Below, one piece after another: positions 3,599-57,886 of a stretch of 64,000 bases of DNA (positions are counted from its first letter, which is position 1; every line of letters starts with the position of its first letter). The translations under genes and the position numbers were made by a program. The DNA is taken from positions 121,849,000-121,912,999 of the forward strand of contig CM041776.1 of NCBI GenBank assembly GCA_023374045.1. The letters run 5' to 3'. The stretch comes from Limonium bicolor (taxonomy: Eukaryota; Streptophyta; Magnoliopsida; Caryophyllales; Plumbaginaceae). A model generated the notes under the pieces. The model ran no database searches. It was not told where the DNA came from and worked only from the letters and a program-made list of their open reading frames with translations.

Positions 3599-3612
3599 AC
3601 TCCCCCACACTT
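3599..3612 (-). other. Polypurine tract of Athila-like element 1
   Basis: Minus-strand sequence GTGTGGGGGAGT lies immediately before the 3' LTR start TGATAAGTGG. This is the expected position for plus-strand DNA priming. Two further copies of the GTGTGGGGGA motif lie upstream in the element (near 4300-4311 and 4477-4488). Confidence 0.85.
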
Positions 3613-4840: not shown

Positions 4841-6105
4841 TCAAGAAACGAGAGTCCATGCATCCGACACCATGAGCAAACTACGGGGCCGGTAGTCCAC
4901 CTCGCTCGAGCATGCGGCACAGCTCCTCATACTGGGCTGCCAACTCCTCCACGCGTCGTTGGTGGGCCTCGAATTCCTCCCGGGAAACCATGGGAGGTGG
5001 TGGGGCCGGTAGGGCTGGTAGCGGGGCAGCTGCAGTAGAGTGCGTGGAGCAGGAAGAGGAGCCGGATGATGACTCTGCGCTGCCGGCTGGCTGTATCTTC
5101 TCCCAACCTCCTGGAGCGCGGCGAAACCCCATCCGCCGGAGGGCAGCATGTCAATGGAAGCCATGGGAGGCTCAGGGACCACGTCCCCAACGTCAACTGT
5201 CCTCGCACTCAAGGAACTGAGTGTGGAGGAAATTAGGGTAGGCGAGGTACTGGGTATCCCGCTTCGCGACCATGTGGCAGAGGTGCCAAACATCAGCCCT
5301 GAGATGGAGAATGGCTTGTCCGGATTCAGGGCGGTGATGTTGTTGTTGAGGAGGAAACAGTCCATTGCATTTATATCCTTACTGTCCCGGGGCAGAATGT
5401 TGTAGCGGATCAGAGCAAGGATGACGCGCTGACTGGCGTCCTGGATCATATTCGAGGTCATCGTGACCCGGGACACTGTGCCTGACTGGTTCTTCTTGCG
5501 GCGCGTGATCGGGAGAGTAGCGAGGAGCTGCTGGCGATGGCTCTGGAGGTAGCTATCGGGGAGGTAGTCTGTGCTGTCGTAATCCTCTGGAGGTATGTCC
5601 AAGGCCTCGATGAAGATCTGCTGAGTGATCTCGATCTTCCTACCGCCGACATACGAGATGAGCTTGGACGCCCTCCCTAGCCGCGTTCGCATAGAACTGT
5701 CGTACGAGGTCAGGGTAAAACTCACCACCCATCGTTAAGAAGCGACCCCATCCGAAAAAGTCAAAGAGGGACTGAAGGTCAAGGTCCTCGATGATGGATG
5801 GCTCCACTTGACGCTCCTGGACGAACTCTCGGCGGGGCCCATTATGGAACCAATGCTTGGCCTCTTCTGTGATGAAGATGTCGTCTATCAATCGGGTTCC
5901 GAAAGGGAAGATTGGCCATGCCACGACGGAAGTAGGCGCGGTCGACTGGTGGCATTGTCTTAAACCAAAGACAAGAAAAAGAAAAACAAAATACAAACAA
6001 AAAAGGAGAGTTAAAGAACGATAAGAAAAGAGAAATGCAAAGGAAGGTTATAGACATATTCATAAAGTGCAGGTGAGAAAGAAAGATGCAAAAATGACAC
6101 AACAA
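4841..6105 (-). pseudogene. Accessory ORF downstream of pol (Athila ORF / env-like position), frameshifted
   Basis: The coding signal begins near 5950-6000 and runs leftwards. The first piece (5640-5996) holds FFGWGRFLTMGGEFYPDLV and RQFYANAAREG. The frame then shifts near 5690 into 4841-5728, with SYVGGRKIEITQQIFIEALDI. A second shift near 5130 moves to 4881-5132, whose C-terminus has a charged, coiled-coil-like stretch (EEFEAHQRRVEELAAQYEEL). The pattern of a W..F, FY.NL-like helix followed by a V.G..IE.T...I...L.IP block resembles the plant transposon-associated domain found in Athila-type extra ORFs. Its position after integrase is where Athila elements carry an env-like gene. No clear signal peptide or membrane anchor is visible, so an envelope role is not supported. 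At least two frameshifts make it a pseudogene. Confidence 0.65.
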
Positions 6106-7566
6106 TTCACAAAAAATTTCGGCATGATCTCCCCCGTTTTCCTACGTTTGCCCGTTCTAAGAACCTCCACAATCTGTACCCAAAAGGGTACCATTTCACT
6201 CACCAAGCGCGCCACTAACAATCTCAATCAAAATAATAACTCGCCCACCAAGCATAGCACCCATTCAGACAGATTTCACAATTTAGGTGACCACAATGTG
6301 CAACCACAAAAATCAACTAATGAAGGAACGGTTAGGCTTTTAGGCATCCACCAACATTCACAAATGACTTAGCATAAATGGAAACACACGCGAATTGTTG
6401 GTTAACAAACAATTATGCAATTAAAGACATAGATCACAAAATTATGCTAGGAACCATAAAATGGCAACATTTTCAATCTCAAAGCACACACAAATCCCAT
6501 AAATAATCATTTAACACAATCCCAATCCATATTGGCAAAAATATCAATTTTCCACCTAAGTCCCCGTTTGGTTCGACCTAATTCTAGCCCAAATGCAACT
6601 TGCTCAAAAATTTCAAAAGTTGACAAAATAGAGTTAGATTCACATACCTTAATGTTTGGAAAGTGAAAATAAGTGAAAATTGGACAATATGGGGGCTAAA
6701 ATCGGTGGAAACTGATTTGGGGGTAAATTGGGTGTTTTAGGGATTTGAGGGGGGTTAGGGCGTGGGTGCTGGATGGCGCTGGTGGACGACGGGCGTCGGA
6801 GAAGCGCGGCGGTCGCCGGAGTTGGCGGAAGTGATGCGGCAATGGTCAGAGAGCTAGGCTAGGCGGTGGTGGGCGCTGGGTTGTGGCGTCGGGTAGCTTG
6901 GGGGAGGCTGGGCGTATCGGGTGCGACTGGAAAGGGAAAGAAAGGAGGAAAGAAAGAAAGAAAGAAGAATGAAACGCTGTGTTCTGCTCTTTTTTTTCAA
7001 AATTTTCTGACCGGACCGCCCCACAGGGGAGGTCCGCACGGGCGGTCCGCAACAAAGAGCAATTTGTTTCAAAATTCGATTCGACCGCCCCACAGGGGAG
7101 GCCCGTAGGGGCGGTCCGCAACAGAGAGCAAATTATCGGTGAAAATCGACGAGACCGCCCCTGGGACGGTCCATAGGGGCGGTCCGCAACATAGAGCAAA
7201 ATCGCAGTGGAAATTGATGGGACCGCCCCACAGGGGCGGTCCGCAACAGAGAGCAAAATCGTAGTGGAAATTGACGGGACCGCCCCTGTCCGCAACAGAA
7301 ACCCAATTTTTCATGTTTATTTCACCTCAAATCATCCAATTTCACACTCCAAGTCCCAGAATCACAAAACAGCAGTAAAAACTAACACAAGCACCAAAAA
7401 CGCAAGCAAAAGCAATAATGAAAACTAACAAGTTAAAACATTTAAATGGGCAAGGAAAGAAATCCGGGTTGCCTCCCGAAAAGCCGCCCTTCTTTTTAAG
7501 GTCTTTGGCTAGACCATAATAAGGTTTAGATGAAACCTGGTTCCCGAAGGAAGATAGGACGAGCTT
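6106..7566 (-). other. Spacer between integrase and accessory ORF in element 1
   Basis: No gene supported. The distal part (6106-6850) is unremarkable. At 7014-7290 lies an array of palindromic GC-rich units (see separate entry). At 7450-7530 is a short block (GGGTTGCCTCCCGAAAAGC) that aligns with the sequence just after integrase in element B (55,225-55,280). Confidence 0.6.
7014..7290. repeat. Array of about five palindromic GACCGCCCC/GGGGCGGTC units
   Basis: Unit cores start near 7014, 7083, 7153, 7231 and 7279. The best unit (7231-7253) reads ACCGCCCCACAGGGGCGGTC, a 9-bp inverted repeat around a 3-nt loop, followed by CGCAACAGAGAGCAAAATCG. Other units are degenerate or half units. The same core, followed by ATAACAGAGAC, lies in both LTRs (3226-3337 and 14179-14256). 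The repeats sit between pol and the accessory ORF. Confidence 0.85.
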
Positions 7567-8922
7567 CTACCCGTTAATGTCACCTCCCATGTAATGCTTG
7601 AGCCTCGAACCATTAACCATCAAAGTTCCGCCTTTCGTGTTCTTTAACTCCACAGCACCATACGGGGTCACCTTAGTGATAGAGAAAGACCCGGCCCAAT
7701 GAGATTTGAGCTTACCCGGGAATAGCTTTAACCGAGAGTTGTAGAGTAAGACCCGATCTCCCTCATGGAATTCTCTCCTGAGGATCATTTTATCGTGCCA
7801 TCTCTTTGTATGCTCTTTGTAGATCCGGTTGTTCTCATAAGCTTCTTCCCGGATCTCTTCTAACTCCGTCAGCTGAAACTTTCTCTTTTCTCCGGCACTC
7901 TTGAGGTCGTAGTTGAGTGCTTTTACAGCCCAATATGATTTATGTGCAAGTTCAACCGGTAGGTGACAAGCTTTCCCGTAGACAAGACGGTAAGGGGACA
8001 TACCAATGGGTGTCTTGTAGGTTGTTCGGTATGCCCATAGTGCATCGTCGAGCTTTAGAGACCAATCCTTTCTTGAAGAATTTACCGTTTTCTGCAAGAT
8101 CCATTTCAGCTCTCTATTGGTGACCTCGGCTTGTCCGTTAGTTTGGGGGTGGTAAGGTAGAGCGACCTTATGTCTCACTCCGTACTTCTCCATTAAAGCT
8201 TCGAATTGCTTGTTGCAGAAGTGAGAACCCCCGTCACTAAGGATTGCTCTAGGCACTCCAAACCTTGTAAAGATATTCTTTCTCAGGAACTTGGTCACCA
8301 CCTTAGCATCGTTTGTAAGAGAGGCTACGGCTTCCACCCACTTGGTCACGTAGTCCACAACTACAAGGATGAAGAGATTGGAGCAAGAGGAAGGGAAGGG
8401 TCCCATGAAGTCTATGCCCCACAAGTCAAATGGTTCAACCTCTAGCATCACATTAAGAGGCATTTCATGTTTTCGGGAGATGTTGCCCATCATCTGACAG
8501 CGGTCATAGGAAGCAACAAAGTTGTGGCAATCTTTGTGTAAGGTTTTCCAGAAGAAACCTGCTTGTAGAACTTTTGTTGTGGTCCTTGCCGGCCCATGAT
8601 GCCCTCCCACTTCAAGAGAGTGGCAATGGGTGAGAATGTCTTGCACTTCACTCAGGGGCACACATCTCCTTATCACCCCACCAGCACAAGTCTTAAAGAG
8701 GTAAGGATCATCCCAAAAGTAGTACCTCGAATCAGCGATGAATTTCTTCCTTTGTTGGTAGGTCAAGTTATGGGGCACCACTCCTCTTGCCAAGTAGTTT
8801 GCAAGATCAGCATACCAAGGATCATCAGCTTCCTTGATCACGAAAACAGTCTCATCCGGAAAGAACTCATTTATAGGCACACCTTTATCGGGCACTTCCA
8901 TACGGGAGAGGTGGTCGGCCAC
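7567..8922 (-). CDS. Integrase of Athila-like element 1 (open 451-codon segment of pol)
   Basis: This is the 3' part of the polyprotein, in one open frame. It has an HHCC-type N-terminal zinc region: [11 protein letters not shown] near residues 99-109, then SYDRCQ near 138-143. The first expected Cys of the C-x2-C pair is Tyr139 here; element B has CDQC at this place. The catalytic triad is intact: D171 in [10 protein letters not shown]230 in ILSDGGSHF, and E266 in NGQAEVTN, with 35 residues between the second D and the E. The C-terminus has a GPY/F-like module ([12 protein letters not shown]). It would insert reverse-transcribed DNA into the host genome. The loss of a zinc ligand and the upstream frameshifts make function doubtful. 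The start shown is only the first Met after the upstream break; it is not a true initiator. Confidence 0.88.
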
Positions 8923-8928
8923 TACATT

Positions 8929-10476
8929 TTACACCCCCGGTTTGTCTCTGATTTCGATCTCAAACTCTTGTAGCAACAAAATCCATCTCAACAACCTTGG
9001 TTTGGCATCCTCTTTGGTAAACAAATATTTCAAGGCTGAGTGGTCCCTATGCATAATCACCCTACTTCCCAAGAGGTAAGAGCGGAACTTATCTAATGCA
9101 AAGACAACCGCTAGAAGCTCCTTCTCGGTTGTGGCATAGTTTTTCTGAGCATCGTTGAGTGTCTTGCTTGCATAGTAGATAGTTCTCAGAATCTTCTCCC
9201 TTTTCTGACATAGGGCTGCCCCCACGGCATAGTCGCTTGCATCACACATTATTTCAAAAGGGAGGCTCCAATCCGGTGATACAACTATCGGGGCTGAGAT
9301 AAGGCACTCCTTGAGTGTGTAGAAGGCCTTCAGACATTCTTCTGTGAATTCGAATTTTGCATCTTTGGCTAAGAGATCACACAGAGTTTAGAGATTTTTG
9401 AGAAGTCCTTGATGAACCTTCTGTAGAACCCGGCATGGCCAAGAAAGCTTCTAATGTCTTTAACCGAGGTGGGTGGTGGTAGCTTCTCGATGACTTCGAC
9501 CTTGGCCCGGTCAACTTCAATCCCATTGGAGGAGATCTTGTGCCCGAGGATGATCCCTTCTCTCACCATGAAATGACATTTCTCCCAATTGAGTACTAGA
9601 TTGTTTCCTCACATCGGGAGAGAATGGCGTCCAAGTTCTCTAGGCAAGAGTTGAAGTTGAGCCCAAAGACTGAGAAATCATCCATGAAAACTTTCATGCT
9701 TTTTCAATAAAGTCGGAGAAGATGGCCATCATACACCTTTGGAACGTTGTGGGAGCATTGCATAATCCGAAAGGCATTCTTCTATATGTGAACGTTCCAT
9801 AAGGGCATGTGAATGTGGTCTTCTCTTGATCTTCCGGGGCTATGAGGATTTGGAAGTACCCCCCCTAGTAGCCATCAAGAAAGCAATAAAAGTCTTGCCC
9901 GACTAACCTCTTTAGCATTTGGTCGATGAAGGGCAAGGAGAAGTGATATTTCCTTGTAGTCGTGTTCAACTTCCGGTAGTCGATGCACACTCTCCAACCG
10001 GTTGTTGTTCTTTGGGGAACCAGCTCACCCTTTTCATTCGACACCACCGTGATTCCTCCTTTCTTTGGTACCACCTGGGTCGGGCTCACCCATTGACTAT
10101 CGGATATGGGGTAGATGATCCCGGAGTAGAGTGGCTTTAGGACCTCCTTTTTAACTACCTCCTTCATCTTCGGGTTGAGCCGCCTTTGAGGTTGAACGAG
10201 TGGCTTGTAGTTGTCCTCATGAAGATTGATGATTGAGTGAGTACTGTGATGTTGACCCTTTATATCGGAGATTGACCAACCAATTGCCCCCTTGTGGTTT
10301 TGAAGCACCTTCAACAAACTGTCCTCTTGTACACCTGTGAGGGAGGAGGAGATAGTGACAGGTGGATCACAAGGTTCAGTCAGATAAACATATTTTAAAT
10401 GAGAAGGTAAAAGTTTCATCTCCATGGTGGGAGGCTTCTCAACCGAAGGAGGTATTCTTTGCTCGCTTCTCTCCAA
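8929..10476 (-). pseudogene. Reverse transcriptase and RNase H of Athila-like element 1
   Basis: Minus-strand pieces give an RT from VSPTQVVPKKGGITVV (about 10,080) through GWRVCIDYRKLNT. The RT active site FMDDFSVFG is near 9680-9660. The thumb/connection holds LGHAGFYRRFIKDFSK, and RNase H follows with [13 protein letters not shown] and [20 protein letters not shown] (9249-8929). Breaks include an in-frame TAG with extra G residues after FLDGY at about 9866, where element B reads FLDGYSGYFQ, plus frameshifts near 9600, 9370 and 8930. The gene would have copied element RNA into DNA. Confidence 0.87.
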
Positions 10477-10627
10477 TGGTTACGGTGGTGGGTAGTGCGT
10501 TCTGAAGTATCTTGGAGCTCTATCCAAAGCAGCTACCATTGCATTCACCTCCGGATCCATCTCCTGTTCATCATCAGACTCAAGCAAAGCAAAACTCAAA
10601 GCATCATAATTAGAGTGAGGGGATGGA

Positions 10628-11530
10628 TTATTTTGCAAAATGGGAGTTGACAACATCTATTGCAAAAATAGCTTCCATATGCGCGGGTCTTTTCACTATC
10701 TTAGACATGTCAAACTCAAGCTTTTCATCATGAAGACGCAAAATAATCTTCCCTTTTTCCACATCTATCAAGGTCCTAGCAGTTCTTAAAAATGGACGGC
10801 CCAAAATCAAAGGGACCTTGACATCTTCTTCCATATCAATCACTATGAAATCAGCGGGGAAAACAAAGGTTCCCACAGTCACTACCAAATCCTCAACTTT
10901 TCCTTTCGGAAACACTAAAGACCTATCAGCAAGTTGTAATTGCACAGTAGTAGGTGTGCACTCACCAATCCTAAGTTTATTAAAAATTGAAAGTGGCATG
11001 AGATTTATACTAGCTCCTAAATCACATAGACCACTACCGCAATTAAAATCACCAATAGAACAAGGGATGATAGACAAACCAGGGTCTCCAAGTTTCGGAG
11101 AAGGGTGCCTTAGTAGGACCGCTGAAATTTCTTCAGTGAGATGCTCCGTTTCAGCTCCTAGCAAAGATCTCTTGTTTGTGAGAATGTCTTTCATGAACTT
11201 TGCATAGATGGGCATCTGTTTCAAAGCATCAGCAAAAGAAATGTTAATTGTCAATTTCTTGAAAATACTTAAAAACTTCCCAAATTGCTCATCTAAATTC
11301 TTTTCTTTGAGCCTATTCGGGAAAGGAAGCGGAGGGAGATGTTTAGCAAGAGTGTAAGAGATAGGTAATTCAGGAGACTCCTTCTCCTTGGAAATATTTT
11401 TTTGTGGAGATTGAACTTCCTCAAGTATCTCTTGGTCTTCCTCTTCCTCTTGATTTTCTTGATTTTGCTTCTCTTGGTCATCAATTTTATCTTGGGGAAA
11501 GGGTTCTTCTAGGAGCCTACCGCTTCTCAA
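10628..11530 (-). CDS. Gag C-terminus and aspartic protease of Athila-like element 1
   Basis: An open 300-codon segment of the gag-pol polyprotein. The N-terminal half is acidic and Glu/Gln-rich. It then carries LPFPNRLKEKNLDEQFGKFL, followed by the retropepsin-like active site LCDLGASINLMPLSIFNKL. VPLILGRPFLRTARTLIDV is the flap-distal conserved block. The protease would cut the polyprotein inside the virus-like particle. The element B polyprotein is colinear over this stretch. The reading frame breaks on both sides, so the Met used is not a native start. Confidence 0.82.
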   Translation of the reverse strand: MRSGRLLEEPFPQDKIDDQEKQNQENQEEEEDQEILEEVQSPQKNISKEKESPELPISYTLAKHLPPLPFPNRLKEKNLDEQFGKFLSIFKKLTINISFADALKQMPIYAKFMKDILTNKRSLLGAETEHLTEEISAVLLRHPSPKLGDPGLSIIPCSIGDFNCGSGLCDLGASINLMPLSIFNKLRIGECTPTTVQLQLADRSLVFPKGKVEDLVVTVGTFVFPADFIVIDMEEDVKVPLILGRPFLRTARTLIDVEKGKIILRLHDEKLEFDMSKIVKRPAHMEAIFAIDVVNSHFAK

Positions 11531-11596
11531 AGTAACCGCCTTAGCTTGTTCTCATGGGTTAGGCTTCGGTTGACTTGGAAAGGTGTCTGGCTGTCT

Positions 11597-12953
11597 CTAA
11601 GCAAGTTGTTCTGAGATTTGATCAACTTGAGTTTTAAGGCTCTGATTAAATGTCATCTGGTTGGCAATGAAGGCCTCTTGCTCGGTGAACTTAGATTGGG
11701 TGGTAGTCATGAAGTTCATCGTCATATTTTGCATGTTTTGCATCATGGCTTCCATCCTAGCCAAGTTACCATCAGAAGAGGAGGAGAATGGTTTGTTGTT
11801 GTTGTTGTTTGAATCCCGGCGGGCCACCTTGAGGTCTATACCCCATTTGAGAATTGTTTGCTTGGTGTGGCCCTTGAGGTTTATAACCCATCGAGTTGTT
11901 GGAAATATTACTCGGTCCTCCTTGGGTGGAATCATTGTTCCTCCATGAGAAATTAGGATGATTTCTCCATGGGGCATTGTTGTTGTTATAGTTGTAGCCG
12001 GGGCGGTTGCTAACAAAGTTAACATCTTCTTGTTCCTCGTTATGTAATTCTTCTTCCACAAAAATGGGTCTCATGGGGACCTGCACATATAGCACACCCC
12101 TCTGTGGCTGAAGTGGAAGATGATGAAGCTACAGATTTTGCATTCTCTTTTTGGGATGTAGCGAGCTTCTCCACCATCTTTGTGAGTGAGGATATTTAGG
12201 CTGAAAGGTGATCGGATGGTTCGACATGAAGCAGACCGGCCGCTCTTGGAGCTCTTCCCTTATTTCTAGCCCATTGCCTCGTGTTGCTAGTCATTGTCTC
12301 AAGAAGTTCCATTCCTTCTTGAGGGGACTTAGTCATGAAGCTACCTCCCGCGGATGAATTCACAAGCAAACGGTTCCCATCGTCAAGCCCATTAAAGAAA
12401 GATAGGCATAATGATTGATCATCCAACCCATGGTGGGAGCAATTCATTAACATTTCCTTGAACCGTCCCATGCATCGTACAAGATTTCTCTGGGCTCTTG
12501 GTAAATGTATTAATCTCTCCAATTAGTTGCCTCGTCCTACTAGTCAGGTAGTATTTGGCAAGGAACTTTTGAGCCATTTGTGCCCATGTTTGGATCGATC
12601 GGGGCGGTAAAAATCTAAACCATCTCGATGCGGAGTCAGATAAGGAATGGGGGAAGAGCTGCAACCGGATTCTCTCTTTACCGTACCGATTTTTCCAAAG
12701 GAATTGCAAAGTCGAGGAAGAGACTTAGATGGTTCGGAGCGTCATCTGGATTTGCTCCACTGAACTTTCCTAAGTCCCGGACTGCGGTAATGAAATGAGT
12801 CTTGAAGACCCATTGTCTCGCTTCCTCCGGTGTCAACACTGGGAGGACTATAGCCGAAGGCCTCCCTTCGGTATCCGGCTGGTGGTAATCAGAGAGGGCT
12901 CGGTGTTGCTGCTGCCCATTATTCTCAATTTCTGGTTGCTCTAGATCCGCCAT
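11597..12953 (-). pseudogene. gag of Athila-like element 1, frameshifted
   Basis: The start codon at 12951-12953 opens MADLEQPEIENNG. Then come WVFKTHFITAVRDLGKFSG, LFPHSLSDSASRWFRFLPP and AQKFLAKYYLTSRTRQLIGE, the retrotransposon gag domain. LSFFNGLDDGNRLLVNSSAG and a C-terminal NYNNNNAPWRNHPNFSWRN low-complexity region follow. The same blocks occur in elements A (49,061-49,828) and B (50,761 on). The reading frame changes at about 12,700, 12,500, 12,150 and 11,800. Gag would form the particle shell and bind RNA. No CCHC zinc knuckle was seen. Confidence 0.85.
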
Positions 12954-13230
12954 GTTTAAATCTCTTATGCATCTCTCTAAGTGCGCTCAAGTTCGGATCT
13001 CGGAGTAGCAAGCGGGGAGCCACTAGACCGAGTGCTTGGCATACACAGAAGGAACACAAGGTACCTAATCAATCACGAGAACAACCAGCACTACAACTTA
13101 GCAACAGAAAATATATAAACAAGGATAGAATAAAACAACAAAACGAAAACACAATCAAAGAAAAAAAACACTAAACTTAAACAAAAACAAAAACTAAAAT
13201 ACCAAAACTAGGGAAATTGATGGAATCATT

Positions 13231-13248
13231 TCCCCGGCAACGGTGCCA
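13231..13248 (-). other. Primer-binding site (tRNA-Asp type) of element 1
   Basis: The minus strand reads TGGCACCGTTGCCGGGGA, six bases after the 5' LTR end. It matches the 3' end of plant tRNA-Asp(GUC) except A for G at position 5. Element A has the related TGGCGCCGCTGCCGGGCA at the equivalent position. Confidence 0.85.
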
Positions 13249-13254
13249 AAAACT

Positions 13255-14522
13255 TGTTGTGCAAAATACTATATAACAAGGTATATAAATAAATGCAAGG
13301 AATAGGCAAGTGCACCTAATCGGTGTAGTACAACAAGTGTCGTATCCACAAGAAATTGGTCCTAACTTCCTAGTCTCGGTACTTAGTAATTGAAATGAAA
13401 ACAGTAAATTGGGGTTTAGCCGGCGGCAAGCTTGATTGTGTTGGTTGAGTAATAGCAAGAACAACAAATAAACTAAAGGTGATAGTTTAATGGATTGGAT
13501 GGAGAAGTACTTTGGGAATTTGGCAATCACCCAAACTACCTAGATATGCTAGCAACTTTTCTTATGTCATAGTTGTCTTTTGGAACAATGATAATAACCC
13601 TCTAAACCAAAGATGATTAATCCTACTTAGTTAATTTTAGCCTTCAAAATCAATTAGGGCTAAACTCACTAAGTAGCATTAAGCAAGTTCTAGAATAAAG
13701 CCCCAAATTATACTCACTAATCCTAGGAGCACAAATCAAGAGTCCTCTCTCAATTTGGTCACAACCCTAACTCAAAACCAATTTGTAGAGAGGGTTCACC
13801 ACAAATGCACTCAAGAGATCAATTTAAGAGCATTGAATGATAACTAAGAGAGAAACAACTATATTAAGGCATAATCAAGATTCACAAGCACATTCTAGGG
13901 TTTGGGGTCAAAACCCATCCCAAGCACAATAGAGTACTACTCAAGCATGGAGGAAAGAAAAACTAGAAAAGAGTAAGAAGAAGCCATTGTTGAAGCTTGG
14001 AAGCTTTGAAGAAGGTGAGCTCTTTCTTCTTCTCTTCTTCCTCTTCTTTCTCCTCCTCTTTCGTCTCCTTGTCATTTTCTCTCTCCTCTTATGTGTGTAG
14101 AAGTGTAGAATGGAAGGAATGTGTAAACCCCCTCTTTTTCCCGTCTTTAAAACAACTTACTGGGCAAAAATCCCGTCCGGACCGCCCCACAAGGGCGGTC
14201 CATAACAGAGACTATTCCAGCGTCTGAATCAACCGGACCGCCCCACAGGGGCGGTCCACACCAGAAGTGCTTCTTCTACATCGAAATCGTCCCGTTTGAC
14301 CCCTCGTCTTTGACACACTCCTTGGGGCATTAAAGCTCAGCCAAAAGTCTTGAGAGTCTCCCAAAAATCATTGCTCAAGTGAGCTTTTACCTATATTTTA
14401 ATCAAACTGTATGAGTTCACCTATATTAGCGAATGCTCTATAAAGTGGTGAAATAGGTCAAAAGTTGCATGAAATAAAGGTAAATAAAGACCTTATAATT
14501 ACATCATTTCACCACTTATCAC
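13255..14522 (-). repeat. 5' LTR of Athila-like element 1
   Basis: On the plus strand it begins TGTTGTGCAAAATACT and ends CACCACTTATCA, followed by the TSD CTCAC at 14523-14527. It is 1268 bp long and colinear with 2293-3598. It carries two simple palindromic units (14179-14203 and 14232-14256) where the other LTR has expanded versions. Confidence 0.93.
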
Positions 14523-46108: not shown

Positions 46109-46246
46109 ATCGGTACTTAGTTTATGTTTTATTCCCTGTTAATGTATGTTTTATTTATGTATGAAGTAATGCAAATGAAAACATAGTCATTGTAACCTAT
46201 GGTCTTTACTGCCTTTAGTTTGTTTTTATAGAAGTTATTAAGTTTT

Positions 46247-47289
<1,043 letters not shown>

Positions 47290-47410
47290 ACCATCCTTAT
47301 GCCTTGGGAATCCTTATAATGGGAATCCTTATAATGGGTATCCTTATCATGAGAATCATTATCATGGGAATCATTATCTTGGGAATCCTTATCTTAAATT
47401 GCAAAGTCTA
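47290..47410. repeat. GGGAATCCTTAT minisatellite
   Basis: About seven degenerate units of GGGAATCCTTATAAT / GAGAATCATTATCAT, 15-18 bp apart, immediately after the 190-bp array. Confidence 0.8.
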
Positions 47411-47519: not shown

Positions 47520-48913
47520 TGACAAGTGGTGAAACTATGTGAATTTAGGTTCTTTATTCACCTTTATTTTAGTGCATTCATGACCTATTTCACCACTTAA
47601 TAGAGTATTTTTGTGATTAATAGTGAACTTACATATTTTGGTCTCTTGATAGGTAAAAGCTCATTTTGAGTATACTTTTGGATTCTTTTGGAGCTGTTAA
47701 AGTGAATCCTTGGATTCTTCATCTCTCAATCTTTCCAACGCCGCAAATGGGGAGCAATTCTGAGCCACAACGAAGATTCTATGTCCCGCGCAAGTTGGAG
47801 CAGATCTCTGGAGCAGGACCGACCCACAGGACCGACCCAGTTTGGGTCGGTCGGATGATTCCCCCGTGAGCCCAACCTACTGGAATCGACCGACCCATAA
47901 GGTTTGGCTCGGTCATGGGTCGGTCGTACTTAACTTCTCACGTGCCCGCCTCTAACAGAGCCAACTGACCCACGGGACCGACCCAGTCTGGGTATGTCGG
48001 AACCAAATTTTGCCCAGATTTACAGTTTTTAACGAGGATTTTGGGGAAAAGAAGGGCATTCTCATTTGGACACAAAAACGAGGGCTAGAGAGCTCGAAAT
48101 GACGATTTTGTGGGAGAAGAAGAGAAGAGAAAGGAAGAAGCTCCCCACCTTCCCCAAGCTCCTCCTATGGCTATCTCTAATCCTTCCTCTCTTGTCTCCT
48201 TTGTAATGTTTGAGTAGTCCCATATAGTGCTCTAGGTTGGGATGAAACTTGGATACACTTAATTAGCTTGTAAACACTCTTCAATTAATGATTATGGTTT
48301 TATCTCCAATGGTGCTTAATTAATGCTTTGAGCTAGCCACTAATTGCATTGTGTGAGATTTCTAATGGTTCTAGGGTTTAGTGCTAGAAATTGGATAAAT
48401 TGGGAATAAATCCTAACTTTCAATTCTCAACTTTCAATTCTATTGATCAGGAATTGGAATTTTAGGGCTTTGGTGAAGAACTTGTTCTAATGCTATCTAA
48501 TTGCTCTTGCCCCTTTGGATTTAAGTGGTTCGAATTAATTGGGTAAGAATTAGTTTTTCTATGATTTGGAAGACTATGATTTTAGTTCTAAAAGACAATA
48601 GGTGTTGAAGTGTATTTATGAGTGAACTTAAGTGGCCAAGTGGATTTCCACTATCGTAGAGTGCTTTTATCTCCATTCCATACTAATTCAGTTTCACTTG
48701 CAATTTTTACTATTTTAATGCTCTGCTAATCAACAAAGCTTGCCTCTGGCTAAACCCCATTTACTGTTTTTACTCACTTCATTTAATCCCGAGCTTAGGA
48801 CTATTGGATCAATTTCCTTGTGGATACGACACTTGTTGTATTACAACGAATATGTACACTTGCCTGCTCATTGCACATATCTACCCGCTTTAATACTCAG
48901 ATTTTGCACAACA
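47520..48913 (+). repeat. 5' LTR of element A
   Basis: Starts TGACAAGTGGTGAAACTATG and ends TTTTGCACAACA. Like the other Athila LTRs it has a TGA(T/C)AAGTGGTGAAA start and a GCACAACA end. At 47,817-47,995 it carries GACCGACCC/GGGTCGGTC inverted repeats at the same distance from the LTR start as the GACCGCCCC palindromes of element 1. Confidence 0.87.
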
Positions 48914-48919
48914 AGTTTA

Positions 48920-50379: not shown

Positions 50380-50760
50380 TGATAAGTGGTGAAAATATAT
50401 ACTTTTATGAGTCATCTTTACATGCATTTTATATGGTTTATGACATAATTTCACCACTTTGTAGAGTATTCTATTTATATTAGTGAACTTACATAATTTT
50501 TATTATCTTTATTATCTTTTAGGTGAATGCTCAATTTGATATTAGCTACCCGCTGCAAGCAAGCAGGCTACCTGCTGCCAACAACCATGCACGACTTGAA
50601 ATAATTCTCCCACGCATGTAAACTACATGGGCATGCGCATCAGCATGCATGTATTCTTCAACAGCAGTGTGCACGTGAAAAGCAACAACATTTATATATC
50701 AACATACATATAATATGTGAAGCATGCACATAATATTTCTCTCGGCTGCAGACTGCAGTG
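50380..50760 (+). repeat. Truncated 5' LTR of element B
   Basis: TGATAAGTGGTGAAAATATA to GCTGCAGACTGCAGTG, matching 56456-56843 of the 3' LTR with small differences (e.g. CATCTGAAG missing versus AAGACTTC). The breakpoint lies at the direct repeat CTGCAGACTGCAG. Confidence 0.92.
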
Positions 50761-53700
50761 AACTCATACAACAACAACAATGCCCCATGGAGAAATCACC
50801 CGAATTTTTCATGGAGGAACAATGAGCAAAATCATGGAGGGCCAAGTAATTCTTCAAACTTCTCTCAAGGGTATAGACCCCAAGCGAACTCCAATATGGG
50901 TTATATACCTCAAGGCCCCCCGGGATTCCAACAACAAACTCAACAATCTCAATCTTCTTCTAGCGGTGCTGATGAGGAGCTAAAGAACATGATGTCGGCT
51001 TTCATTGCCTCCTCTAATGCTAAAACCGCAGCACAAGAGGCTCACAATGCCCGCCAGGATGCTAGGAATTTGAGCCAAGATGCTTTCAACAAAGAAATCA
51101 AAACCCATTTGGATCATCTCTCTCAGCAATTTGAGCAGTTTGTACAAAAACCGCCAACCGCTTTCCTAAGTCAGCCGAAGCAAAATCCGAGGGAACATGC
51201 TAAAGCAGTGACTTTGAGAAGTGGGAAGCATTTAGAATCACAATATCCACCAGCTGAAAACGAGGATCAAGAATCTCAAACAGTTCAAGAGGAAGATCAA
51301 AAGACTTTTGAGGAAACCCCTCCTCCTCCGAAAAATACTTCCAAGGAGAAGGAGTCTCCTGAAACTTCTACACCCTCTACTCTCACTAAGATTCTTCCTC
51401 CTCTTCCTTTTCCAAACAGGCTCAAAGATAGATATTTAGATGAACAATTTGGAAAGTTTTTGAGCCACTTTAAGAAACTGACAATTAACATTCCATTTTC
51501 TGATGCATTAAAACAGATGCCAATCTATGCAAAGTTTGTGAAAGACATCATCTCCAACAAACGATCGCTGCAAGAGGTTGAAACCGTGCATCTTACACAA
51601 GAAGTATCAGCTGTGCTGCTAAAGAGCTTCAAGAACCTCCCTCCAAAACTTGGAGACCCTAGTTTGCCAATCATACCTTGCTCTATCGATGATGTTGATT
51701 GTGGTAGTGGACTTTGTGATTTAGGAGCTAGTATTAATCTCATGCCACTGTCAATATTTAATAAGCTTGGAATTGGTGAATGCATGCCTACTTCAATTCA
51801 ATTGCAATTAGCTGATAGGTCCTTAGTGTTCCCGAAAGGGATAGTAGAGGACTTGGTTGTGACTGTTGGAACCTTTGTGTTCCCTGCTGATTTTATTGTG
51901 ATTGACATGGAAGAGGATGCTAGGGTACCATTGATTTTGGGTCGTCCTTTTATGCGGACTGCTAGGGCTCTAATAGATGTTGAGAAAGGAAAAATTATAT
52001 TGAGACTTCATGATGAAACAATAGAGTATGACATGTCTAAGGCAGTAAAGAAACCTGCGCAGGTGGAAGCTGTTTATGCTACAGATATTGTTGACTCTAT
52101 TGTGCAAGATAATTCCTCTTCTCTAATTTGTTATGATGCTCTTAAACTTGCTCTGCTTGAGTTTCGTGATGAGCAGGTGATGGACCAAGAGGTAGTAGAG
52201 ATGGTGGCATCCTTGGACAGTAGGAAATCTTATGTCATGCCACGCTACCCACCACCAGAACCATTAGAGCGGTCTGCCCAAAAGCCTCCACCGTCGGTTG
52301 AGAAACCTCCCATCGTGGAGATGAAACCCTTACCTTCACACTTAAAATATGTTTATTTGACTGACCCCTGTGTTCTACCTGTTATTATCTCCTCCTCTCT
52401 TACAGGTGCACAAGAGGAAAGTCTTTTGAAGGTGCTTCGAAGCCACAAAAGAGCTATTGGCTGGTCCATATCAGACATCAAAGGCATTGACCCTCGCTTC
52501 TGCACTCACCACATATATATGGAGGATGATTACAAACCTTTGGTCCAACCGCAGAGAAGACTAAATCCTAACATGAAAGAGGTGGTGAAAGCTGAAGTCC
52601 TAAAACTGCTAGACTCCGGGATAATCTACTCCATATCTGACAGCAAATGGGTGAGTCCAGTTCAGGTTGTGCCAAAGAAAGGAGGCATCATAGTGGTCCC
52701 CAATGCGAAGGGTGAGTTGGTCCCCCAAAGAACCACAAATGGTTGGAGGGTGTGCATTGACTATAGGAAATTGAATACTGCCACCCGCAAGGACCACTTC
52801 CCTCTGCCCTTCATCGACCAGATGCTTGAGAGACTGGCCGGGCAAGACTACTACTGCTTCCTCGATGGTTACTCAGGCTATTTCCAGATACCCATTGCCC
52901 CAGAGGACCAAGAGAAGACTACTTTTACATGCCCGTATGGGACATTTGCATACAACCGGATGCCGTTTGGTTTATGTAATGCTCTTGCAACTTTCCAGAG
53001 GTGTATGATGTCCATCTTCTCCGATTTTCTAGAGAAGAGCATCGAGGTGTTCATGGACGACTTCTCAGTTTTTGGTCTCACCTTTGAATCTTGCTTAGAT
53101 AATTTGGATGACATTCTTGCTCTGTGTGAGGAAACTAACCTTGTGCCTAACTGGGAAAAATGTCACTTCATGGTCAGAGAAGGGATAGTCCTTGGGCATA
53201 AAATTTCTTCAAAAGGTATTGAGGTTGACCAGGCCAAGGTCGAGATCATTGAAAAATTTCCACCTCCTACCTCAGTCAAGGACATCATAATTTTTCTTGG
53301 TCATGCTGGGTTTTACAGAAGGTTTATTAAGGACTTCTCAAAAATTTTGAAGCCTTTGTGTGACCTCTTGGCCAAGGATACTGAGTTCAACTTCACTGAG
53401 GAGTGTATGCAAGCCTTCAATACCCTTAAGGAGTGTCTCATCTCAGCCCCCATCGTAGTTTCACCAGATTGGAGCCTTCCATTTGAGATTATGTGTGATG
53501 CTAGTGACTATGTAGTGGGGGCAGCCTTGTGTCAGAAGAAGGAGAAAATTATGAGGACCATCTACTATGCTAGCAGAACCCTTAATGAAGCTCAGAAGAA
53601 TTATGCCACTACTGAGAAAGAGCTTCTAGCAGTGGTCTTTGCTTTGGATAAGTTCAGATCTTACCTTCTTGGGAGCAAAGTGATAGTCCACACAGATCAC

Positions 53701-54213
53701 TCTGCTCTCAAATATCTATTCACTAAGGAGGATGCCAAGCCCAGACTTCTCAGATGGATCCTCCTGCTGCAAGAATTTGAGATCGAAGTCAGAGATAAGC
53801 CAGGAGTGCAAAATGTAGTGGCTGACCACTTATCTCATATAGAAGCACCAGAGGATGGAGTGCCCATTAATGAATTCTTCCCGGATGAGTATCTCTTCAT
53901 GCTCGGCCACACAGATGATCCTTGGTATGCAGACATGGCAAACTATTTGGCACAGGGAGTAGTGCCTCGTAAAATGACTTATCAACAAAAGAAGAAATTC
54001 TTTGCAGATGTGAAGCACTACTATTGGGAGGACCCTTTCCTTTTTATGGCCTGTGCAGATGGGATGGTTAGAAGGTGTGTGCCGACAGCCGAAGTACAGA
54101 ATATTCTGATGCATTTCCATTCTCTCGAGGCAGGAGGACACCATGGGCCGGCAAGGACAGCAGCTAAGATACTTCAATCAGGGTTCTTTTGGAAGACCAT
54201 TCACAAGGACTGA
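50761..54213 (+). CDS. gag-pol of element B: gag C-terminus, protease, RT, RNase H, start of integrase
   Basis: An open frame of about 1150 codons; it has no native start because the deletion removed it. In order: NSYNNNNAPWRNHPNFSWRN (gag tail); LCDLGASINLMPLSIFNKLG (retropepsin-like active site, residue about 320); VPLILGRPFMRTARALIDV; RT from about residue 620 with GWRVCIDYRKLNTATRK, FLDGYSGYFQIPIAPEDQEK and active site FMDDFSVFG near residue 765; RNase H with [19 protein letters not shown] near 911 and [20 protein letters not shown]; and the integrase HH zinc region HFHSLEAGGHHG near 1119. A TGA at 54211-54213 replaces the Cys codon found in element 1 (HKDC). RT and RNase H motifs are intact. 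Confidence 0.93.
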   Translation, partial: NSYNNNNAPWRNHPNFSWRNNEQNHGGPSNSSNFSQGYRPQANSNMGYIPQGPPGFQQQTQQSQSSSSGADEELKNMMSAFIASSNAKTAAQEAHNARQDARNLSQDAFNKEIKTHLDHLSQQFEQFVQKPPTAFLSQPKQNPREHAKAVTLRSGKHLESQYPPAENEDQESQTVQEEDQKTFEETPPPPKNTSKEKESPETSTPSTLTKILPPLPFPNRLKDRYLDEQFGKFLSHFKKLTINIPFSDALKQMPIYAKFVKDIISNKRSLQEVETVHLTQEVSAVLLKSFKNLPPKLGDPSLPIIPCSIDDVDCGSGLCDLGASINLMPLSIFNKLGIGECMPTSIQLQLADRSLVFPKGIVEDLVVTVGTFVFPADFIVIDMEEDARVPLILGRPFMRTARALIDVEKGKIILRLHDETIEYDMSKAVKKPAQVEAVYATDIVDSIVQDNSSSLICYDALKLALLEFRDEQVMDQEVVEMVASLDSRKSYVMPRYPPPEPLERSAQKPPPSVEKPPIVEMKPLPSHLKYVYLTDPCVLPVIISSSLTGAQEESLLKVLRSHKRAIGWSISDIKGIDPRFCTHHIYMEDDYKPLVQPQRRLNPNMKEVVKAEVLKLLDSGIIYSISDSKWVSPVQVVPKKGGIIVVPNAKGELVPQRTTNGWRVCIDYRKLNTATRKDHFPLPFIDQMLERLAGQDYYCFLDGYSGYFQIPIAPEDQEKTTFTCPYGTFAYNRMPFGLCNALATFQRCMMSIFSDFLEKSIEVFMDDFSVFGLTFESCLDNLDDILALCEETNLVPNWEKCHFMVREGIVLGHKISSKGIEVDQAKVEIIEKFPPPTSVKDIIIFLGHAGFYRRFIKDFSKILKPLCDLLAKDTEFNFTEECMQAFNTLKECLISAPIVVSPDWSLPFEIMCDASDYVVGAALCQKKEKIMRTIYYASRTLNEAQKNYATTEKELLAVVFALDKFRSYLLGSKVIVHTDHSALKYLFTKEDAKPRLLRWILLLQEFEIEVRDKPGVQNVVADHLSHIEAPEDGVPINEFFPDEYLFMLGHTDDPWYADMANYLAQGVVPRKMTYQQKKKFFADVKHYYWEDPFLFMACADGMVRRCVPTAEVQNILMHFHSLEAGGHHGPARTAAKILQSGFFWKTIHKD

Positions 54214-55212
54214 CATGCTTATGTTGCCTCTTGTGACCAATGCCAGAGACTTGGAAACACCTCCAGAAAACATGAGATGCCTCTGAATGTCATTATTGAG
54301 GTGGAACCCTTTGACCTATGGGGAATTGACTTCATGGACCCTTTTCCTTCATCTTTCTCGAATCTCTACATTTTGGTGGCAGTTGACTATGTCACCAAGT
54401 GGGTAGAAGCCATTGCATCCCCCACTAGTGATGCTAAGGTGGTGATCAAATTCCTTAAAAAGAACATCTTTACAAGGTTTGGAGTGCCACGTGCTATAAT
54501 CAGTGATGGTGGGTCTCACTTCTGCAATAAGCAGTTTGAAGCTTTAATAGGAAAATATGGAGTGAGACACAAGGTAGCTCTAACTTACCATCCCCAAACT
54601 AATGGCCATGCCGAGGTCACCAACCGAGAGCTGAAGTGGATCCTTCAGAAAACAGTCAATTCAGTAAGGAAGGATTGGTCACTAAAGCTTGATGATGCAC
54701 TATGGGCATATAGGACAGCTTATAAGACTCCCATCGGCATGTCTCCATACCGACTTGTCTTTGGAAAAGCTTGTCATCTACCAGTGGAGTTGGTGCACAA
54801 ATCATTCTGGGCTATGAAAGCATTGAACTTTGATCTGATGAGTGCGGTTGACAAAAGAAAATTCCAACTGACTGACTTGGAAGAGTTTTGAGAGGACGCA
54901 TATGAGAACAACCACATCTATAAGGAGAAAGCCAAGAGGTGGCATGATAAGATGATCCTTAGGCGGGAGTTCCATGTGGGAGATTTGGTTCTGCTTTACA
55001 ATTCCAGGCTGAAGTTGTTCCCTGGCAAATTAAAATCTCATTGGGATGGACCTTTCACTGTCTCAAATGTCACTCAATATGGATCAGTTGAGTTGAAGAA
55101 CGCAAAAGGGCATACCTTCATGGTGAATGGATCGAGGCTCAAGCATTATATGGGAGGTAATCTTGAGAAAGTCGAAGCTCGTGCCATCATTCTAAGAGAC
55201 CCTCAGGTTTGA
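54214..55212 (+). pseudogene. Integrase of element B, continued past two nonsense codons
   Basis: The frame continues directly after TGA with [15 protein letters not shown], giving the CC zinc pair, then catalytic D in [14 protein letters not shown] in [13 protein letters not shown] and E in [13 protein letters not shown] second TGA at 54,889-54,891 follows LTDLEEF (an Arg codon in element 1, CGA to TGA). The C-terminal module ([27 protein letters not shown]) is complete to the stop at 55,212. All catalytic residues are retained. Confidence 0.9.
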
Positions 55213-56455
55213 TCTATGCTTACTGTGTCTAGCCAAAGACGTTAAAGAAGGGCAGCTCTCCGGGAGGCAGCCCGGATTCCATTTCATTTCATTTTATCTT
55301 CATGTCTTTTTCGTTAGTTTAAAAAACTGCACAATATTTTGAACTCTTGTGAGTTAATGGTTTTTTGAGCATTCCTCGGAATTTCATTTTGTGCCCAATT
55401 GGTATTGTCTGTGTTGTGAATATTTTGGAAACAGGTGTGCCCCTCTGAAAAAGGGATGGATTTCGGAACAATTTCAAAGGAAACTCTCGCAAAAATTTTC
55501 CAAGGACCTTCATCTCCAATGATCGAAGGCTGCGCCACATCGACCCCGGACACTCTCAAGTGTGGGGGAATCCCGTCTTCAGTCTGCACCTTATCAGGGG
55601 AGTACTAGTTTCACCCTTTATTTTAATTTTGCACAATACATATCATGCACACTTGTTGTTAAACTCTATGCAAGTGCTTCGAAAAGGTCTTTTGTTTATC
55701 CCTTCGTTATTCCTTGAACTATGGGGACATTGTCCCATTTAAGTGTGGGGGAGACGACCTTTTCTTTTTGCGCACTGCTCAATTTCTTTATGCTTATCTA
55801 TTGCTTCCACTTAGGAGTTACATTTAAATGTAAGCAAGTTTTTCTTTGAATTCTTGGGATTTTTCATCAAAAAAAAATTCAAAAATTCTCTCTTGAGGAG
55901 CATGTATATGCGGTGCAACCATAAAACCTTATCTTGGTGAATTTTTATTGCTTAGGGGTTCTTTCTATCTTCTCTCTTAGGGATTGCTAAGGGATGCTTC
56001 TTTGTGAAAATCTAAAAAGGGACTTGTGAGACACCATTGGTAACCAACAAAATGAAAGTTGAGTGTTCTTTAATGCAAAAGCTAAAATGCCTAAATATAT
56101 CTCCTCATCTCTTATGCAAAAGTGAAACAAATGCATACATCTATTTTTCCTTTTGTTTTCTCCTCAATGCCCATTCTTAAGAGAAGTTGGCCATGGTATA
56201 AGTTCTCAAAGTCACCTAATCTTTATAACTTTGAAGTACTCTAGATCATACCCCGAAACTCTATCTTTTTATTTTTACCCAAAGCACACCCATGTCACCA
56301 TGATGAGGTTGGTTCGCAGTCCTCATGAGTTTTCCACCATTTTGTTCACTGAAATCCAAGAATTCATTTAAACACTTGCTTGCTTTAAATATTCCTTCTT
56401 CTTGTGGGTTCCTAGTTTTGCTTGAGGACAAGCAAAAAGATAAGTGTGGGGGAGT
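55213..56455 (+). other. 3' non-coding region and PPT of element B
   Basis: No gene. The accessory ORF and palindrome array of element 1 are absent; similarity passes from the post-integrase block (to about 55,280) directly to the CCCCGGACACTCTCAAGTGT block. AAGTGTGGGGGA occurs three times: at about 55,557, at 55,740 and at 56,443, where it is the PPT next to the LTR. Confidence 0.8.
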
Positions 56456-57886
56456 TGATAAGTGGTGAAAATATATACTTTTATGAGTCATCTTTACATG
56501 CATTTTATATGGTTTATGACATAATTTCACCACTTTGTAGAGTATTCTATTTATATTAGTGAACTTACATAATTTTTATTATCTTTATTATCTTTTAGGT
56601 GAATGCTCAATTTGACATTAGTTACCCGCCGCAAGCAAGCAGGCTACTGCGGCCAACAACCATGCACGACTTGAAATAATTCTCCCACACATGTAAACTA
56701 CATGGGCATGCGCATCAGCATGCATGTATTCTTCAAGACTTCAACAGCAGTGTGCACGTGAAAAGCAGCAACATTTATATATCAACATACATATAATACG
56801 TGAAGCATGCACATAATATTTCTCTGGGCTGCAGACTGCAGTGGGCTGGATCTATTCTCACACGGGCTGCGCATGAATTTGCTCGCGTGGACCTCCGTCG
56901 GTTGCAAGGACTCAAGACGATTTACAAGAACGACAAATATATATATATATATATATATATTCTACATGGATCGAAAAAAAAGAGGACGTACGGGACGGAC
57001 TCGAACAGAAGAGACAAAAAGAGAAGAAAGTCGAGAACAGAAGAAAAAAAAAGACGGGAGTCGAAGACGAAAAAAAAGAGACAACAGGGAACGGAAGAAG
57101 AAAAGGAGAAAGCACCCCATCTCCATTAAACTTCTTCAACAACCCATGACTATCTCTTTTACTCATCTTCTCTTTATCTCTTTAATGTCTGAGTAGTCCT
57201 ATTTTGTACTCTTGGGATAAGGTTTGACCCCAAATCCCCAAACTAGCATGTAAAACCTAATTTGCTTAAATATAGTTGTTTTGTCTCTCTAAATTTAATT
57301 AATGTGCTAGATTGATCACCTTTGTGCATTTGTGGTTTCTTCTAACTTCATACACATGTGATTTAGAGATTTTGGCCAAGAGAGAGACAAACCCTAGATT
57401 TTTCCTTCTTTAATTAGTTGGTGGATTTAGGGCTATTGTTAAGGGCTTGTGTTTAATGCTATCTAGTGATGTTTATCCAACCTAACCGAAGGGTTTATTT
57501 AACTAGATAAGATTTGACTTTCACTAGGATTTTAGAGTTAGTCATAACTTTAGTCCTAATAGACAACTAGAGCAAATTGGGATAAAATGTTATGTTTGGG
57601 AGTGTTTGGGCGATTACACTTTCCCGGGGTACATCTTCGTTTCAATCCATCAAAATACCACTTTAGTTTAATTGTTTTCTATTTTTATTATTAAACCGAA
57701 TCACTACGCTCGCCTCCGGCTAAACCCATATTTTTACCGCTTTTAATTAAATAACTAAATACCGAGACTATGGAGATAGAACCAATTTCCTTGTGGATAC
57801 GACACTTGTTGTACTACATCGAATAGGTGCAGTTGCCTACTCTTTGCACATACTTATATATTCATTTATATAGTATTTGCACAACA
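56456..57886 (+). repeat. 3' LTR of element B
   Basis: Starts TGATAAGTGGTGAAAATATA, ends TTTGCACAACA, 1431 bp, followed by TSD GCGCA. Contains a short (AT)n run at 56,937-56,961 and a purine-rich GA stretch at 56,970-57,110. It has no GACCGCCCC-type palindromes. Confidence 0.92.

What the first reader, a model, noticed from the sequence alone, without database searches (positions are those of the whole stretch)
47817..47995. A differently spelled palindrome at the same LTR position in a related element
Element A's LTR carries GACCGACCC/GGGTCGGTC inverted repeats 300-475 bp from its start. Element 1 has GACCGCCCC/GGGGCGGTC at the matching place. Flanking words align in the sense direction (GGTTGATTCC...CTGGAAT versus GGATGATTCC...CTGGAAT, plus TAACAGAG). 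Both arms changed together, which suggests selection or gene conversion acting on the fold rather than the sequence.
Basis: partly seen in the sequence, partly recalled or inferred. Interest (0 to 1): 0.78.

Follow-up and report, generated by a model that had tools for sequence, protein, structure and literature searches.

The report
Matching palindromes respelled in retrotransposon LTRs
Plant retrotransposons in this genome carry clusters of short GC-rich mirror-image motifs in their control regions, and related families spell nearly all copies in a cluster the same new way, which looks like copying between motif copies plus upkeep of a control site more than base-by-base repair of a fold.

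Summary
The palindromes are real and sit at the matching LTR place, before a shared CCCAG...TTTT(W)AA stretch. A third spelling (GACCGACCT/AGGTCGGTC) occurs there in related LTRs.

The reading 'covariation keeps a fold rather than a sequence' is mostly not borne out. The A family shows no significant compensatory excess. At position 9, however, paired arms outside the A LTRs agree better (77 of 78 against 41 of 49), so a pairing effect remains possible.

One copy has an exact 9-nt spacer inversion, a trace of template switching. In element 1 and the A family a second cluster, upstream of the post-pol ORF, is spelled like the LTR.

Best reading: a cis-regulatory repeated-motif array, homogenised by template switching and turnover. 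It works like Sirevirus (Ty1/copia) 'RM boxes', which a 2010 paper calls Sirevirus-specific, but here in Athila-like Ty3/gypsy elements and another family. The 9-mers GACCGACCC and GACCGCCCC occur 184,092 and 33,607 times genome-wide, 19 and 21 times their controls. Function is inferred.

The parts
2293..14521 (-). Element 1, an Athila-like Ty3/gypsy retrotransposon with two LTRs and target duplication CTCAC
   Evidence: LTR pair 95.3% identical; TSD read; integrase Pfam hits
3226..3330 (-). Palindrome cluster in the 3' LTR of element 1: two (+,+,-) modules of GACCGCCCC/GGGGCGGTC, some arms decayed
   Evidence: RNA fold z -3.17
14180..14256 (-). Palindrome cluster in the 5' LTR of element 1: two (+,-) modules
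   Evidence: RNA fold z -6.48
7014..7286 (-). Internal cluster of element 1 with the same spelling, modules about 57-70 bp apart, between integrase and the post-pol ORF
   Evidence: CpG o/e 1.05; fold z -5.89 for 7150-7290
7567..8922 (-). Integrase ORF of element 1, directly upstream of the internal cluster in the sense direction
   Evidence: PF00665 E=1.8e-16, PF17921 E=5.2e-11
5640..6047 (-). Stretch with the start of the post-pol ORF (position of the Athila env-like ORF), downstream of the internal cluster
   Evidence: PF20167 fragment E=1.4e-5, 25.5 bits, below the curated cut-off of 45; 50-53% aa identity in four A-type loci
47520..48916 (+). A-type 5' LTR, followed by primer-binding-like TTTATGGCGCCGCTGCCGGG
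   Evidence: 20 of 30 fetched copies (this LTR, L029, included) match from its first base to base 1392 or beyond
47817..47998 (+). Palindrome cluster of the A-type LTR: three modules of GACCGACCC/GGGTCGGTC, the last one imperfect
   Evidence: RNA fold z -4.55 for 47800-47940
48026..48032 (+). TATA-like TTTTTAA 27 bp after the cluster (promoter role inferred)
   Evidence: TTTT(W)AA or TTATTAA found in 17 of the 19 copies (of 30) in which the anchor word was found
3193..3198 (-). TATA-like TTTTAA 27 bp after the cluster of element 1's 3' LTR (promoter role inferred)
50380..57886 (+). Element B, nested insertion (TSD GCGCA); 5' LTR cut short (50380-50760), 3' LTR 56456-57886 without the motif

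Best explanation
The palindromes are units of a repeated-motif (RM) array that serves as an upstream control region (U3) of Athila-like retrotransposons, with a second array upstream of the post-pol ORF. The unit is a composite box, CTG-N5-GACCG(A/C)CC(C/T), followed by an inverted copy, placed just before a TATA-like site (anatomy shown; promoter role inferred). Each cluster is a small array of inverted and direct repeats that turns over. Polymerase or reverse transcriptase switches template between nearby inverted arms and slips between direct arms, so a new spelling in one arm is copied to the others in both orientations (inferred from partnerless arms, arm gain and loss, and one spacer inversion). 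Selection on the element lineage keeps the CCG core readable by a DNA-binding factor (inferred). Joint change of arms therefore reflects concerted evolution of a binding-site array more than base-pair repair. The factor is unknown.
For: At position 6 partnerless arms follow the spelling as well as paired arms: 132 of 136 against 225 of 232 over 46 clusters; outside the A LTRs 48 of 49 against 75 of 78. In 30 A-type LTR copies position 6 is A in 232 of 239 arms, and in four A-type internal clusters in 39 of 39 arms; in element 1 it is C in 10 of 10 LTR arms and 10 of 12 internal arms. A third spelling (A at 6, T at 9) prevails in the clusters of L040 (7 of 9 arms) and L072 (8 of 9), which sit before the same CCCAG...TTTTAA. 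In a tree of LTR 3' parts the C-spelled L009/L010 join the A..T-spelled L072, away from element 1, which suggests more than one switch. L036 has loop AGACTTTAT, the exact reverse complement of ATAAAGTCT found in 7 of 26 H2 modules; spacer inversion is a published trace of template switching (PMC8604942, passages). Arm number varies between A copies. CTG lies exactly 5 nt before the first arm in 65 of 155 modules, about 2.4 expected from 1 in 64, with hits in all ten groups examined. CpG o/e is 0.61-1.05 in the clusters against 0.20-0.28 in the rest of the LTRs. The Sirevirus RM layout is alike (PMC2829016).
Against: No expression, methylation, small-RNA or binding data. At position 9 paired arms outside the A LTRs match their cluster better than partnerless arms (77 of 78 against 41 of 49, p=0.002), which fits copying between hairpin arms but equally selection for pairing. 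Arms are not significantly more conserved than other sites in the A family (mean diversity 0.085 against 0.141 between arms, p=0.08, and 0.147 in flanks, p=0.14, at non-CpG G/C sites; all non-CpG sites p=0.41). One clear spacer inversion was found among 78 A-type modules (26 each of H1, H2, H3); one H3 case, AGACT for AGTCT, needs only one substitution. L027/L063 carry a C-spelled and an A..T-spelled cluster 0.3-0.4 kb apart, so one factor per element is too simple. The window-wide CpG o/e is 0.62, so the clusters stand out mainly against the CpG-poor LTR. Spellings are family-bound, copies are related and independent events are few. RNA folds are strong.
Confidence: 0.54

Rival explanations
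1. Selection on an RNA or DNA hairpin: the fold is needed (for example for packaging, dimerisation or termination) and mutations in one arm are rescued by matching changes in the other.
For: Folds are more stable than shuffles: z -4.55, -3.17, -6.48 and -5.89, against 0.75 for a control stretch. Between families the paired arms match at positions 6 and 9. At position 9 paired arms outside the A LTRs agree better than partnerless arms (77 of 78 against 41 of 49).
Against: No significant compensatory excess within the A family; wobble-keeping and breaking changes are 31 to 32, and 14 to 24 for an alternative pairing; partnerless arms respell equally at position 6; an uncompensated GACCTCCCC arm facing GGGGCGGTC recurs in family C copies; inside the A LTRs paired arms agree no better at position 9.
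Confidence: 0.18
2. Switch in recognition: the change A to C at position 6 retunes the site for a different factor. By recall, ACCGAC is the DRE/CRT core and (A/G)CCGCC resembles the GCC-box core, both bound by AP2/ERF proteins; all arms change because all must bind the same factor.
For: The cluster-wide differences, CCG(A/C)C and the last base, keep an AP2/ERF-like core (sequence plus recall); a composite CTG-N5 box recurs across families that share no long DNA match. PMC2829016 reports mainly stress-related factor sites for Sirevirus RMs.
Against: No binding data; L063 holds both spellings in one LTR; independent selection of each arm needs many parallel changes unless arms are also copied. 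A paper search for retrotransposon, LTR, ACCGAC and GCC box found none.
Confidence: 0.18
3. Host silencing target: palindromes yield small RNAs, and respelling is escape from them, as a tug of war argued for maize Sireviruses.
For: PMC10760457 (passages) reports, citing Bousios 2016, that small RNAs map in excess to palindromic clusters of maize Sirevirus LTRs; strong folds here.
Against: No small-RNA data here; the same paper found no obvious structure peak in maize Ty3/RLG elements; escape does not explain why the core persists.
Confidence: 0.1

Closest known systems
Sirevirus repeated-motif (RM) boxes, Bousios et al. 2010, PMC2829016 (passages and section 9 seen)
   Same: Palindromic CGG-CCG motifs, clustered 200-400 bp into the LTR, CpG-rich against the rest of the LTR, shortly before a TATA-like site, and a second cluster in the linker upstream of the extra ORF; families spell the motif differently.
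   Different: Sireviruses are Ty1/copia; element 1 and A-type elements have Ty3/gypsy pol. The paper calls the RM Sirevirus-specific, having compared Ty1/copia elements. Here two or three spellings are compared on a homologous LTR backbone, and a family without a long DNA match shares the motif.
Maize Sirevirus LTR palindromes, Bousios et al. 2016 (not held; known here only through passages of PMC10760457 and PMC5311732)
   Same: Fast-evolving palindromes in the LTR control region.
   Different: Small-RNA mapping was done there, not here; Ty3/RLG elements showed no obvious structure peak in maize.
Template switching between short inverted repeats (PMC8604942 passages; PMC8794818 abstract and opening text)
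   Same: Arms made identical in one event; spacer inversion; apparent compensatory changes without selection.
   Different: Described there for DNA replication, in yeast genes and in RNA genes; here it would act on a multi-arm array in a retroelement, possibly during reverse transcription.

Membership tests
Sirevirus RM boxes | Palindrome with CGG-CCG core | tested here: met
   GACCG(C/A)CC(C/T)...(G/A)GG(G/T)CGGTC
Sirevirus RM boxes | Cluster starts 200-400 bp into the LTR | tested here: met
   266/269 bp in element 1, 298 bp in A (LTR start 47520)
Sirevirus RM boxes | Extra copies in the linker upstream of the env-position ORF | tested here: met
   Element 1 7014-7286; A-type clusters in 7 of 16 loci examined; downstream ORF recognised in L069, L071, L074, L075. 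Env nature of that ORF was not tested
Sirevirus RM boxes | At least eight copies per element | tested here: inconclusive
   About seven dyads in element 1, some imperfect (two in the 3' LTR, five in the linker, read); more if single arms are counted
Sirevirus RM boxes | Clusters coincide with CpG islands | tested here: inconclusive
   CpG o/e 0.61-1.05 and GC 0.58-0.59, against 0.20-0.28 and 0.37 in the rest of the LTRs, but 0.62 window-wide; no island caller was run
Sirevirus RM boxes | Element is a Ty1/copia Sirevirus | tested here: not met
   RT-RNaseH-integrase order in element B, which is 76% identical to element 1 over 4.2 kb and matches A-type L066 by tblastn; gag and integrase in L066. 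So it works like RM boxes but is not filed as Sirevirus
Athila (Tat/Athila Ty3/gypsy) | Ty3/gypsy pol order with a post-pol ORF | tested here: met
Athila (Tat/Athila Ty3/gypsy) | Reverse-transcriptase phylogeny within the Athila clade | not tested
Template-switch (quasipalindrome) correction | Spacer inversion between otherwise kept arms | tested here: met
   One of 26 H2 modules, L036, with one arm lost beside it; a shuffle of its nine letters equals an inverse of an observed loop in 76 of 200000
Template-switch (quasipalindrome) correction | Observed as a mutation event | not testable with these tools
   Needs new insertions or a reverse-transcription assay

The most novel reading that the evidence does not exclude
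One composite control box, CTG-N5-GACCG(A/C)CC(C/T) plus inverted copy, has been taken up by retrotransposon families of one genome that share no long DNA match (Athila-like elements and a family with repeats of about 3 kb or more, an iMet-type primer site and no recognised pol). It has reached on the order of two hundred thousand 9-mer copies and is respelled cluster-wide when the factor that reads it changes. The same module is duplicated upstream of the post-pol ORF as an internal promoter. RM control would then be a general, convergent design of plant retrotransposons with an extra ORF, not a Sirevirus trait.
Probability: 0.27. Interest if true: 0.75.

Novelty: new variant of a known kind. 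Interest (0 to 1): 0.52.

Why it matters
It shows between-family arm covariation without a significant within-family signal of fold selection, with partnerless arms changing too at the main diagnostic position. That is a warning for covariation tests on repeated palindromes. It also extends a layout described as Sirevirus-specific to Ty3/gypsy elements, with LTR and linker clusters spelled alike, which makes the internal-promoter idea for post-pol ORFs directly testable.

Tried and rejected
Not accepted as the main cause: fold selection, though position 9 keeps it open. Rejected: element-wide spelling as a strict rule, because L027/L063 hold two spellings in one LTR. Rejected: TAACAGAG as a sense-direction anchor. 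My script label 'A pol' is wrong: that ORF (50758-54213) belongs to element B. The TATA count printed (4 of 30) is an error: the anchor search also hit CCCAG inside an arm; one search replaced it.

Led nowhere: Pfam on 10 ORFs of family C gave nothing near a curated cut-off. Of the 30 fetched A copies, five near-identical ones were dropped. Of 12 linker stretches fetched, seven (L068, L070, L073, L076-L079) held no cluster; their distances were guessed, and L077 contains runs of N. Genome-wide joint counts of spellings on the two arms, and counts of GACCGACCT and GACCGTCCC, did not complete. No R-scape. The spelling tree rests on sequences 46-63% identical between families, and the stretch taken from L072 may run past its LTR. 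Paper searches for Athila or gypsy LTR palindromes showed none that by title or abstract start describes this in Athila; subscription journals are mostly not held.

Full report
Where it is. The window is G000:C1:121849000-121912999 of a 2.92-Gb genome. It holds element 1 on the minus strand (2293-14521, LTRs 95.3% identical, target duplication CTCAC) and an A-type 5' LTR on the plus strand (47520-48916) with a primer-binding-like site. The pol and 3' LTR after the A-type LTR are not A's: element B (50380-57886, duplication GCGCA) is inserted there, and its LTRs lack the motif.

The observation. GACCGCCCC occurs 14 times in the window (0.05 expected) and GACCGACCC 7 times, six in this cluster (0.17 expected). 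In sense orientation the element 1 LTRs carry two modules of one or two forward arms and one reverse arm; the A LTR carries three. Both clusters lie about 270-480 bp into the LTR and are followed at nearly the same distance by CCCAG and a TTTT(W)AA, so the place is homologous. TAACAGAG, however, lies on opposite strands relative to the two elements.

Copies. A search with the A cluster scored 40 of 1471 candidate places; 30 were fetched, the window's own included (L029-L058). A search with the element 1 cluster scored 40 of 1101, none of which could be fetched, so element 1-type copies other than L011 are missing from the counts. GACCGACCC occurs 184,092 times genome-wide against 9,924 for the reversed control, and GACCGCCCC 33,607 times against 1,572. 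How many of these lie in clusters was not counted.

Spelling is largely a cluster trait. In the 30 A copies position 6 is A in 232 of 239 arms, G in 6 and C in 1. In element 1 it is C in 10 of 10 LTR arms and 10 of 12 internal arms. A third spelling, GACCGACCT/AGGTCGGTC, prevails in clusters of L040 and L072 (7 and 8 of 9 arms have T at position 9), before CCCAG and TTTTAA again, and in a second cluster of L027/L063. Over 46 clusters, 225 of 232 paired arms and 132 of 136 partnerless arms agree with the majority at position 6 (the 30 A LTRs were pooled as one group there, and one search gives the same numbers cluster by cluster). At position 9 the picture is mixed: outside the A LTRs 77 of 78 paired and 41 of 49 partnerless arms agree (p=0.002); inside them 141 of 154 and 85 of 87 (p=0.09); dropping near-identical rows changes little. 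I chose 16 named clusters plus the 30 A LTRs; most family C copies and three A-type linkers (L065, L072, L074) were left out, and near-identical copies are in the main count.

LTR and linker agree. Element 1 has a second cluster at 7014-7286, downstream of integrase and upstream of the post-pol ORF. A-type loci L065, L066, L069, L071, L072, L074 and L075 have one too, 7 of 16 examined, spelled like A-type LTRs; L065 and L066 are 99% identical to each other, and the L069 and L071 clusters are nearly the same. All 39 arms of four such clusters have A at position 6. In L069, L071, L074 and L075 the post-pol ORF is recognisable at 50-53% amino-acid identity to that of element 1.

No significant covariation inside the family. 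On 25 non-redundant A copies, 3 of 652 pair cells are compensatory, 1.2 expected; 105 of 1000 permutations reach 3. One-sided changes keep a wobble pair 31 times and break the pair 32 times over three hairpins in 30 copies; for an alternative pairing of the middle arm the numbers are 14 and 24. Arms are not significantly less diverse than spacers (p=0.08) or flanks (p=0.14). So old copies appear simply to decay; the joint changes would have happened in the source lineages (inference).

How it may happen. Arm number varies between A copies. In L036 the H2 loop is AGACTTTAT, the exact inverse of the ATAAAGTCT seen in 7 of 26 modules, with one arm lost beside it. Such spacer inversion and arm homogenisation are traces of template switching (PMC8604942 passages; PMC8794818 abstract and opening text). 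That this occurs during reverse transcription is my inference. The spelling does not follow the LTR tree as built: C-spelled L009/L010 group with A..T-spelled L072 (support 0.999) and more weakly L040 (0.66), away from element 1; the alignment is poor.

What is kept. The spelling of whole clusters differs only at positions 6 and 9, though single arms depart elsewhere, such as GACCTCCCC at one arm of family C. The spacers between modules are 44-64% identical in the four comparisons made. CTG stands exactly 5 nt before the first arm in 65 of 155 modules (about 2.4 expected from 1 in 64), and 6 nt before in 19; all ten groups have some at 5 nt, but copies are related, so this is no proper probability. 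Family C (L059-L063) has direct repeats of about 3 kb or more some 9.1-9.9 kb apart, taken as LTRs though their ends were not reached; an iMet-type primer site TGGTATCAGAGC (name recalled; one mismatch in L063); no DNA match of 150 bp or more to the window and no tblastn match to element B's pol (L027 does match element 1 over 114 bp at the motif); and nothing near a Pfam cut-off in the 10 ORFs scanned. Sharing a composite site without a longer alignment points to recognition of sequence.

Comparison. The layout is like the RM boxes of Sireviruses: palindromic CGG-CCG motifs 200-400 bp into the LTR, CpG-rich, before a TATA box, and again upstream of env (PMC2829016). That paper calls the RM Sirevirus-specific. 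The present elements have Ty3/gypsy domain order, so they are not Sireviruses; they work like them. Their CpG content is raised against the rest of the LTR (0.61-1.05 against 0.20-0.28) but the window average is 0.62. In maize, small RNAs concentrate on Sirevirus palindromes and Ty3/RLG elements showed no obvious structure peak (PMC10760457 passages). The folds here are strong (z -3.2 to -6.5, control 0.75), so silencing and fold roles stay open.

Verdict. The inference from matched arms to fold selection is weakened by partnerless arms at position 6 and by within-family counts, and kept alive by position 9. Concerted evolution of a sequence-recognised control array is the best account, at 0.54.

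Noticed in passing
window 50380-57886: Element B is a nested insertion with target duplication GCGCA; its 5' LTR is cut to 381 bp and joined to internal sequence, and its LTRs lack the palindromes, although its pol region is 76% identical to that of element 1.
   Followed up: partly
L059-L063 (G000:C1): A family with direct repeats of about 3 kb or more, 97-99% identical in four pairs (96% in a fifth), iMet-type primer site and no long ORF shares the GACCGCCCC palindromes: possibly a non-autonomous family using the same box.
   Followed up: partly
L027/L063 (C1:13387200-13387950): One repeat unit holds two palindrome clusters 0.3-0.4 kb apart with different spellings (GACCGCCCC and GACCGACCT).
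   Followed up: partly
G000:C1:1423693-1465789: GACCGACCC clusters recur five times at a period of about 10.46 kb, which suggests tandem LTR-internal-LTR units.
   Followed up: no
window 46237-47290: Array of diverged tandem repeats (for example at a 191-bp offset) directly upstream of the A-type LTR.
   Followed up: no
window 44034-44579: ORF with a plant mobile domain (PF10536, E=2e-33); the lone GACCGACCC at 44231 lies inside it and is not part of a cluster.
   Followed up: no
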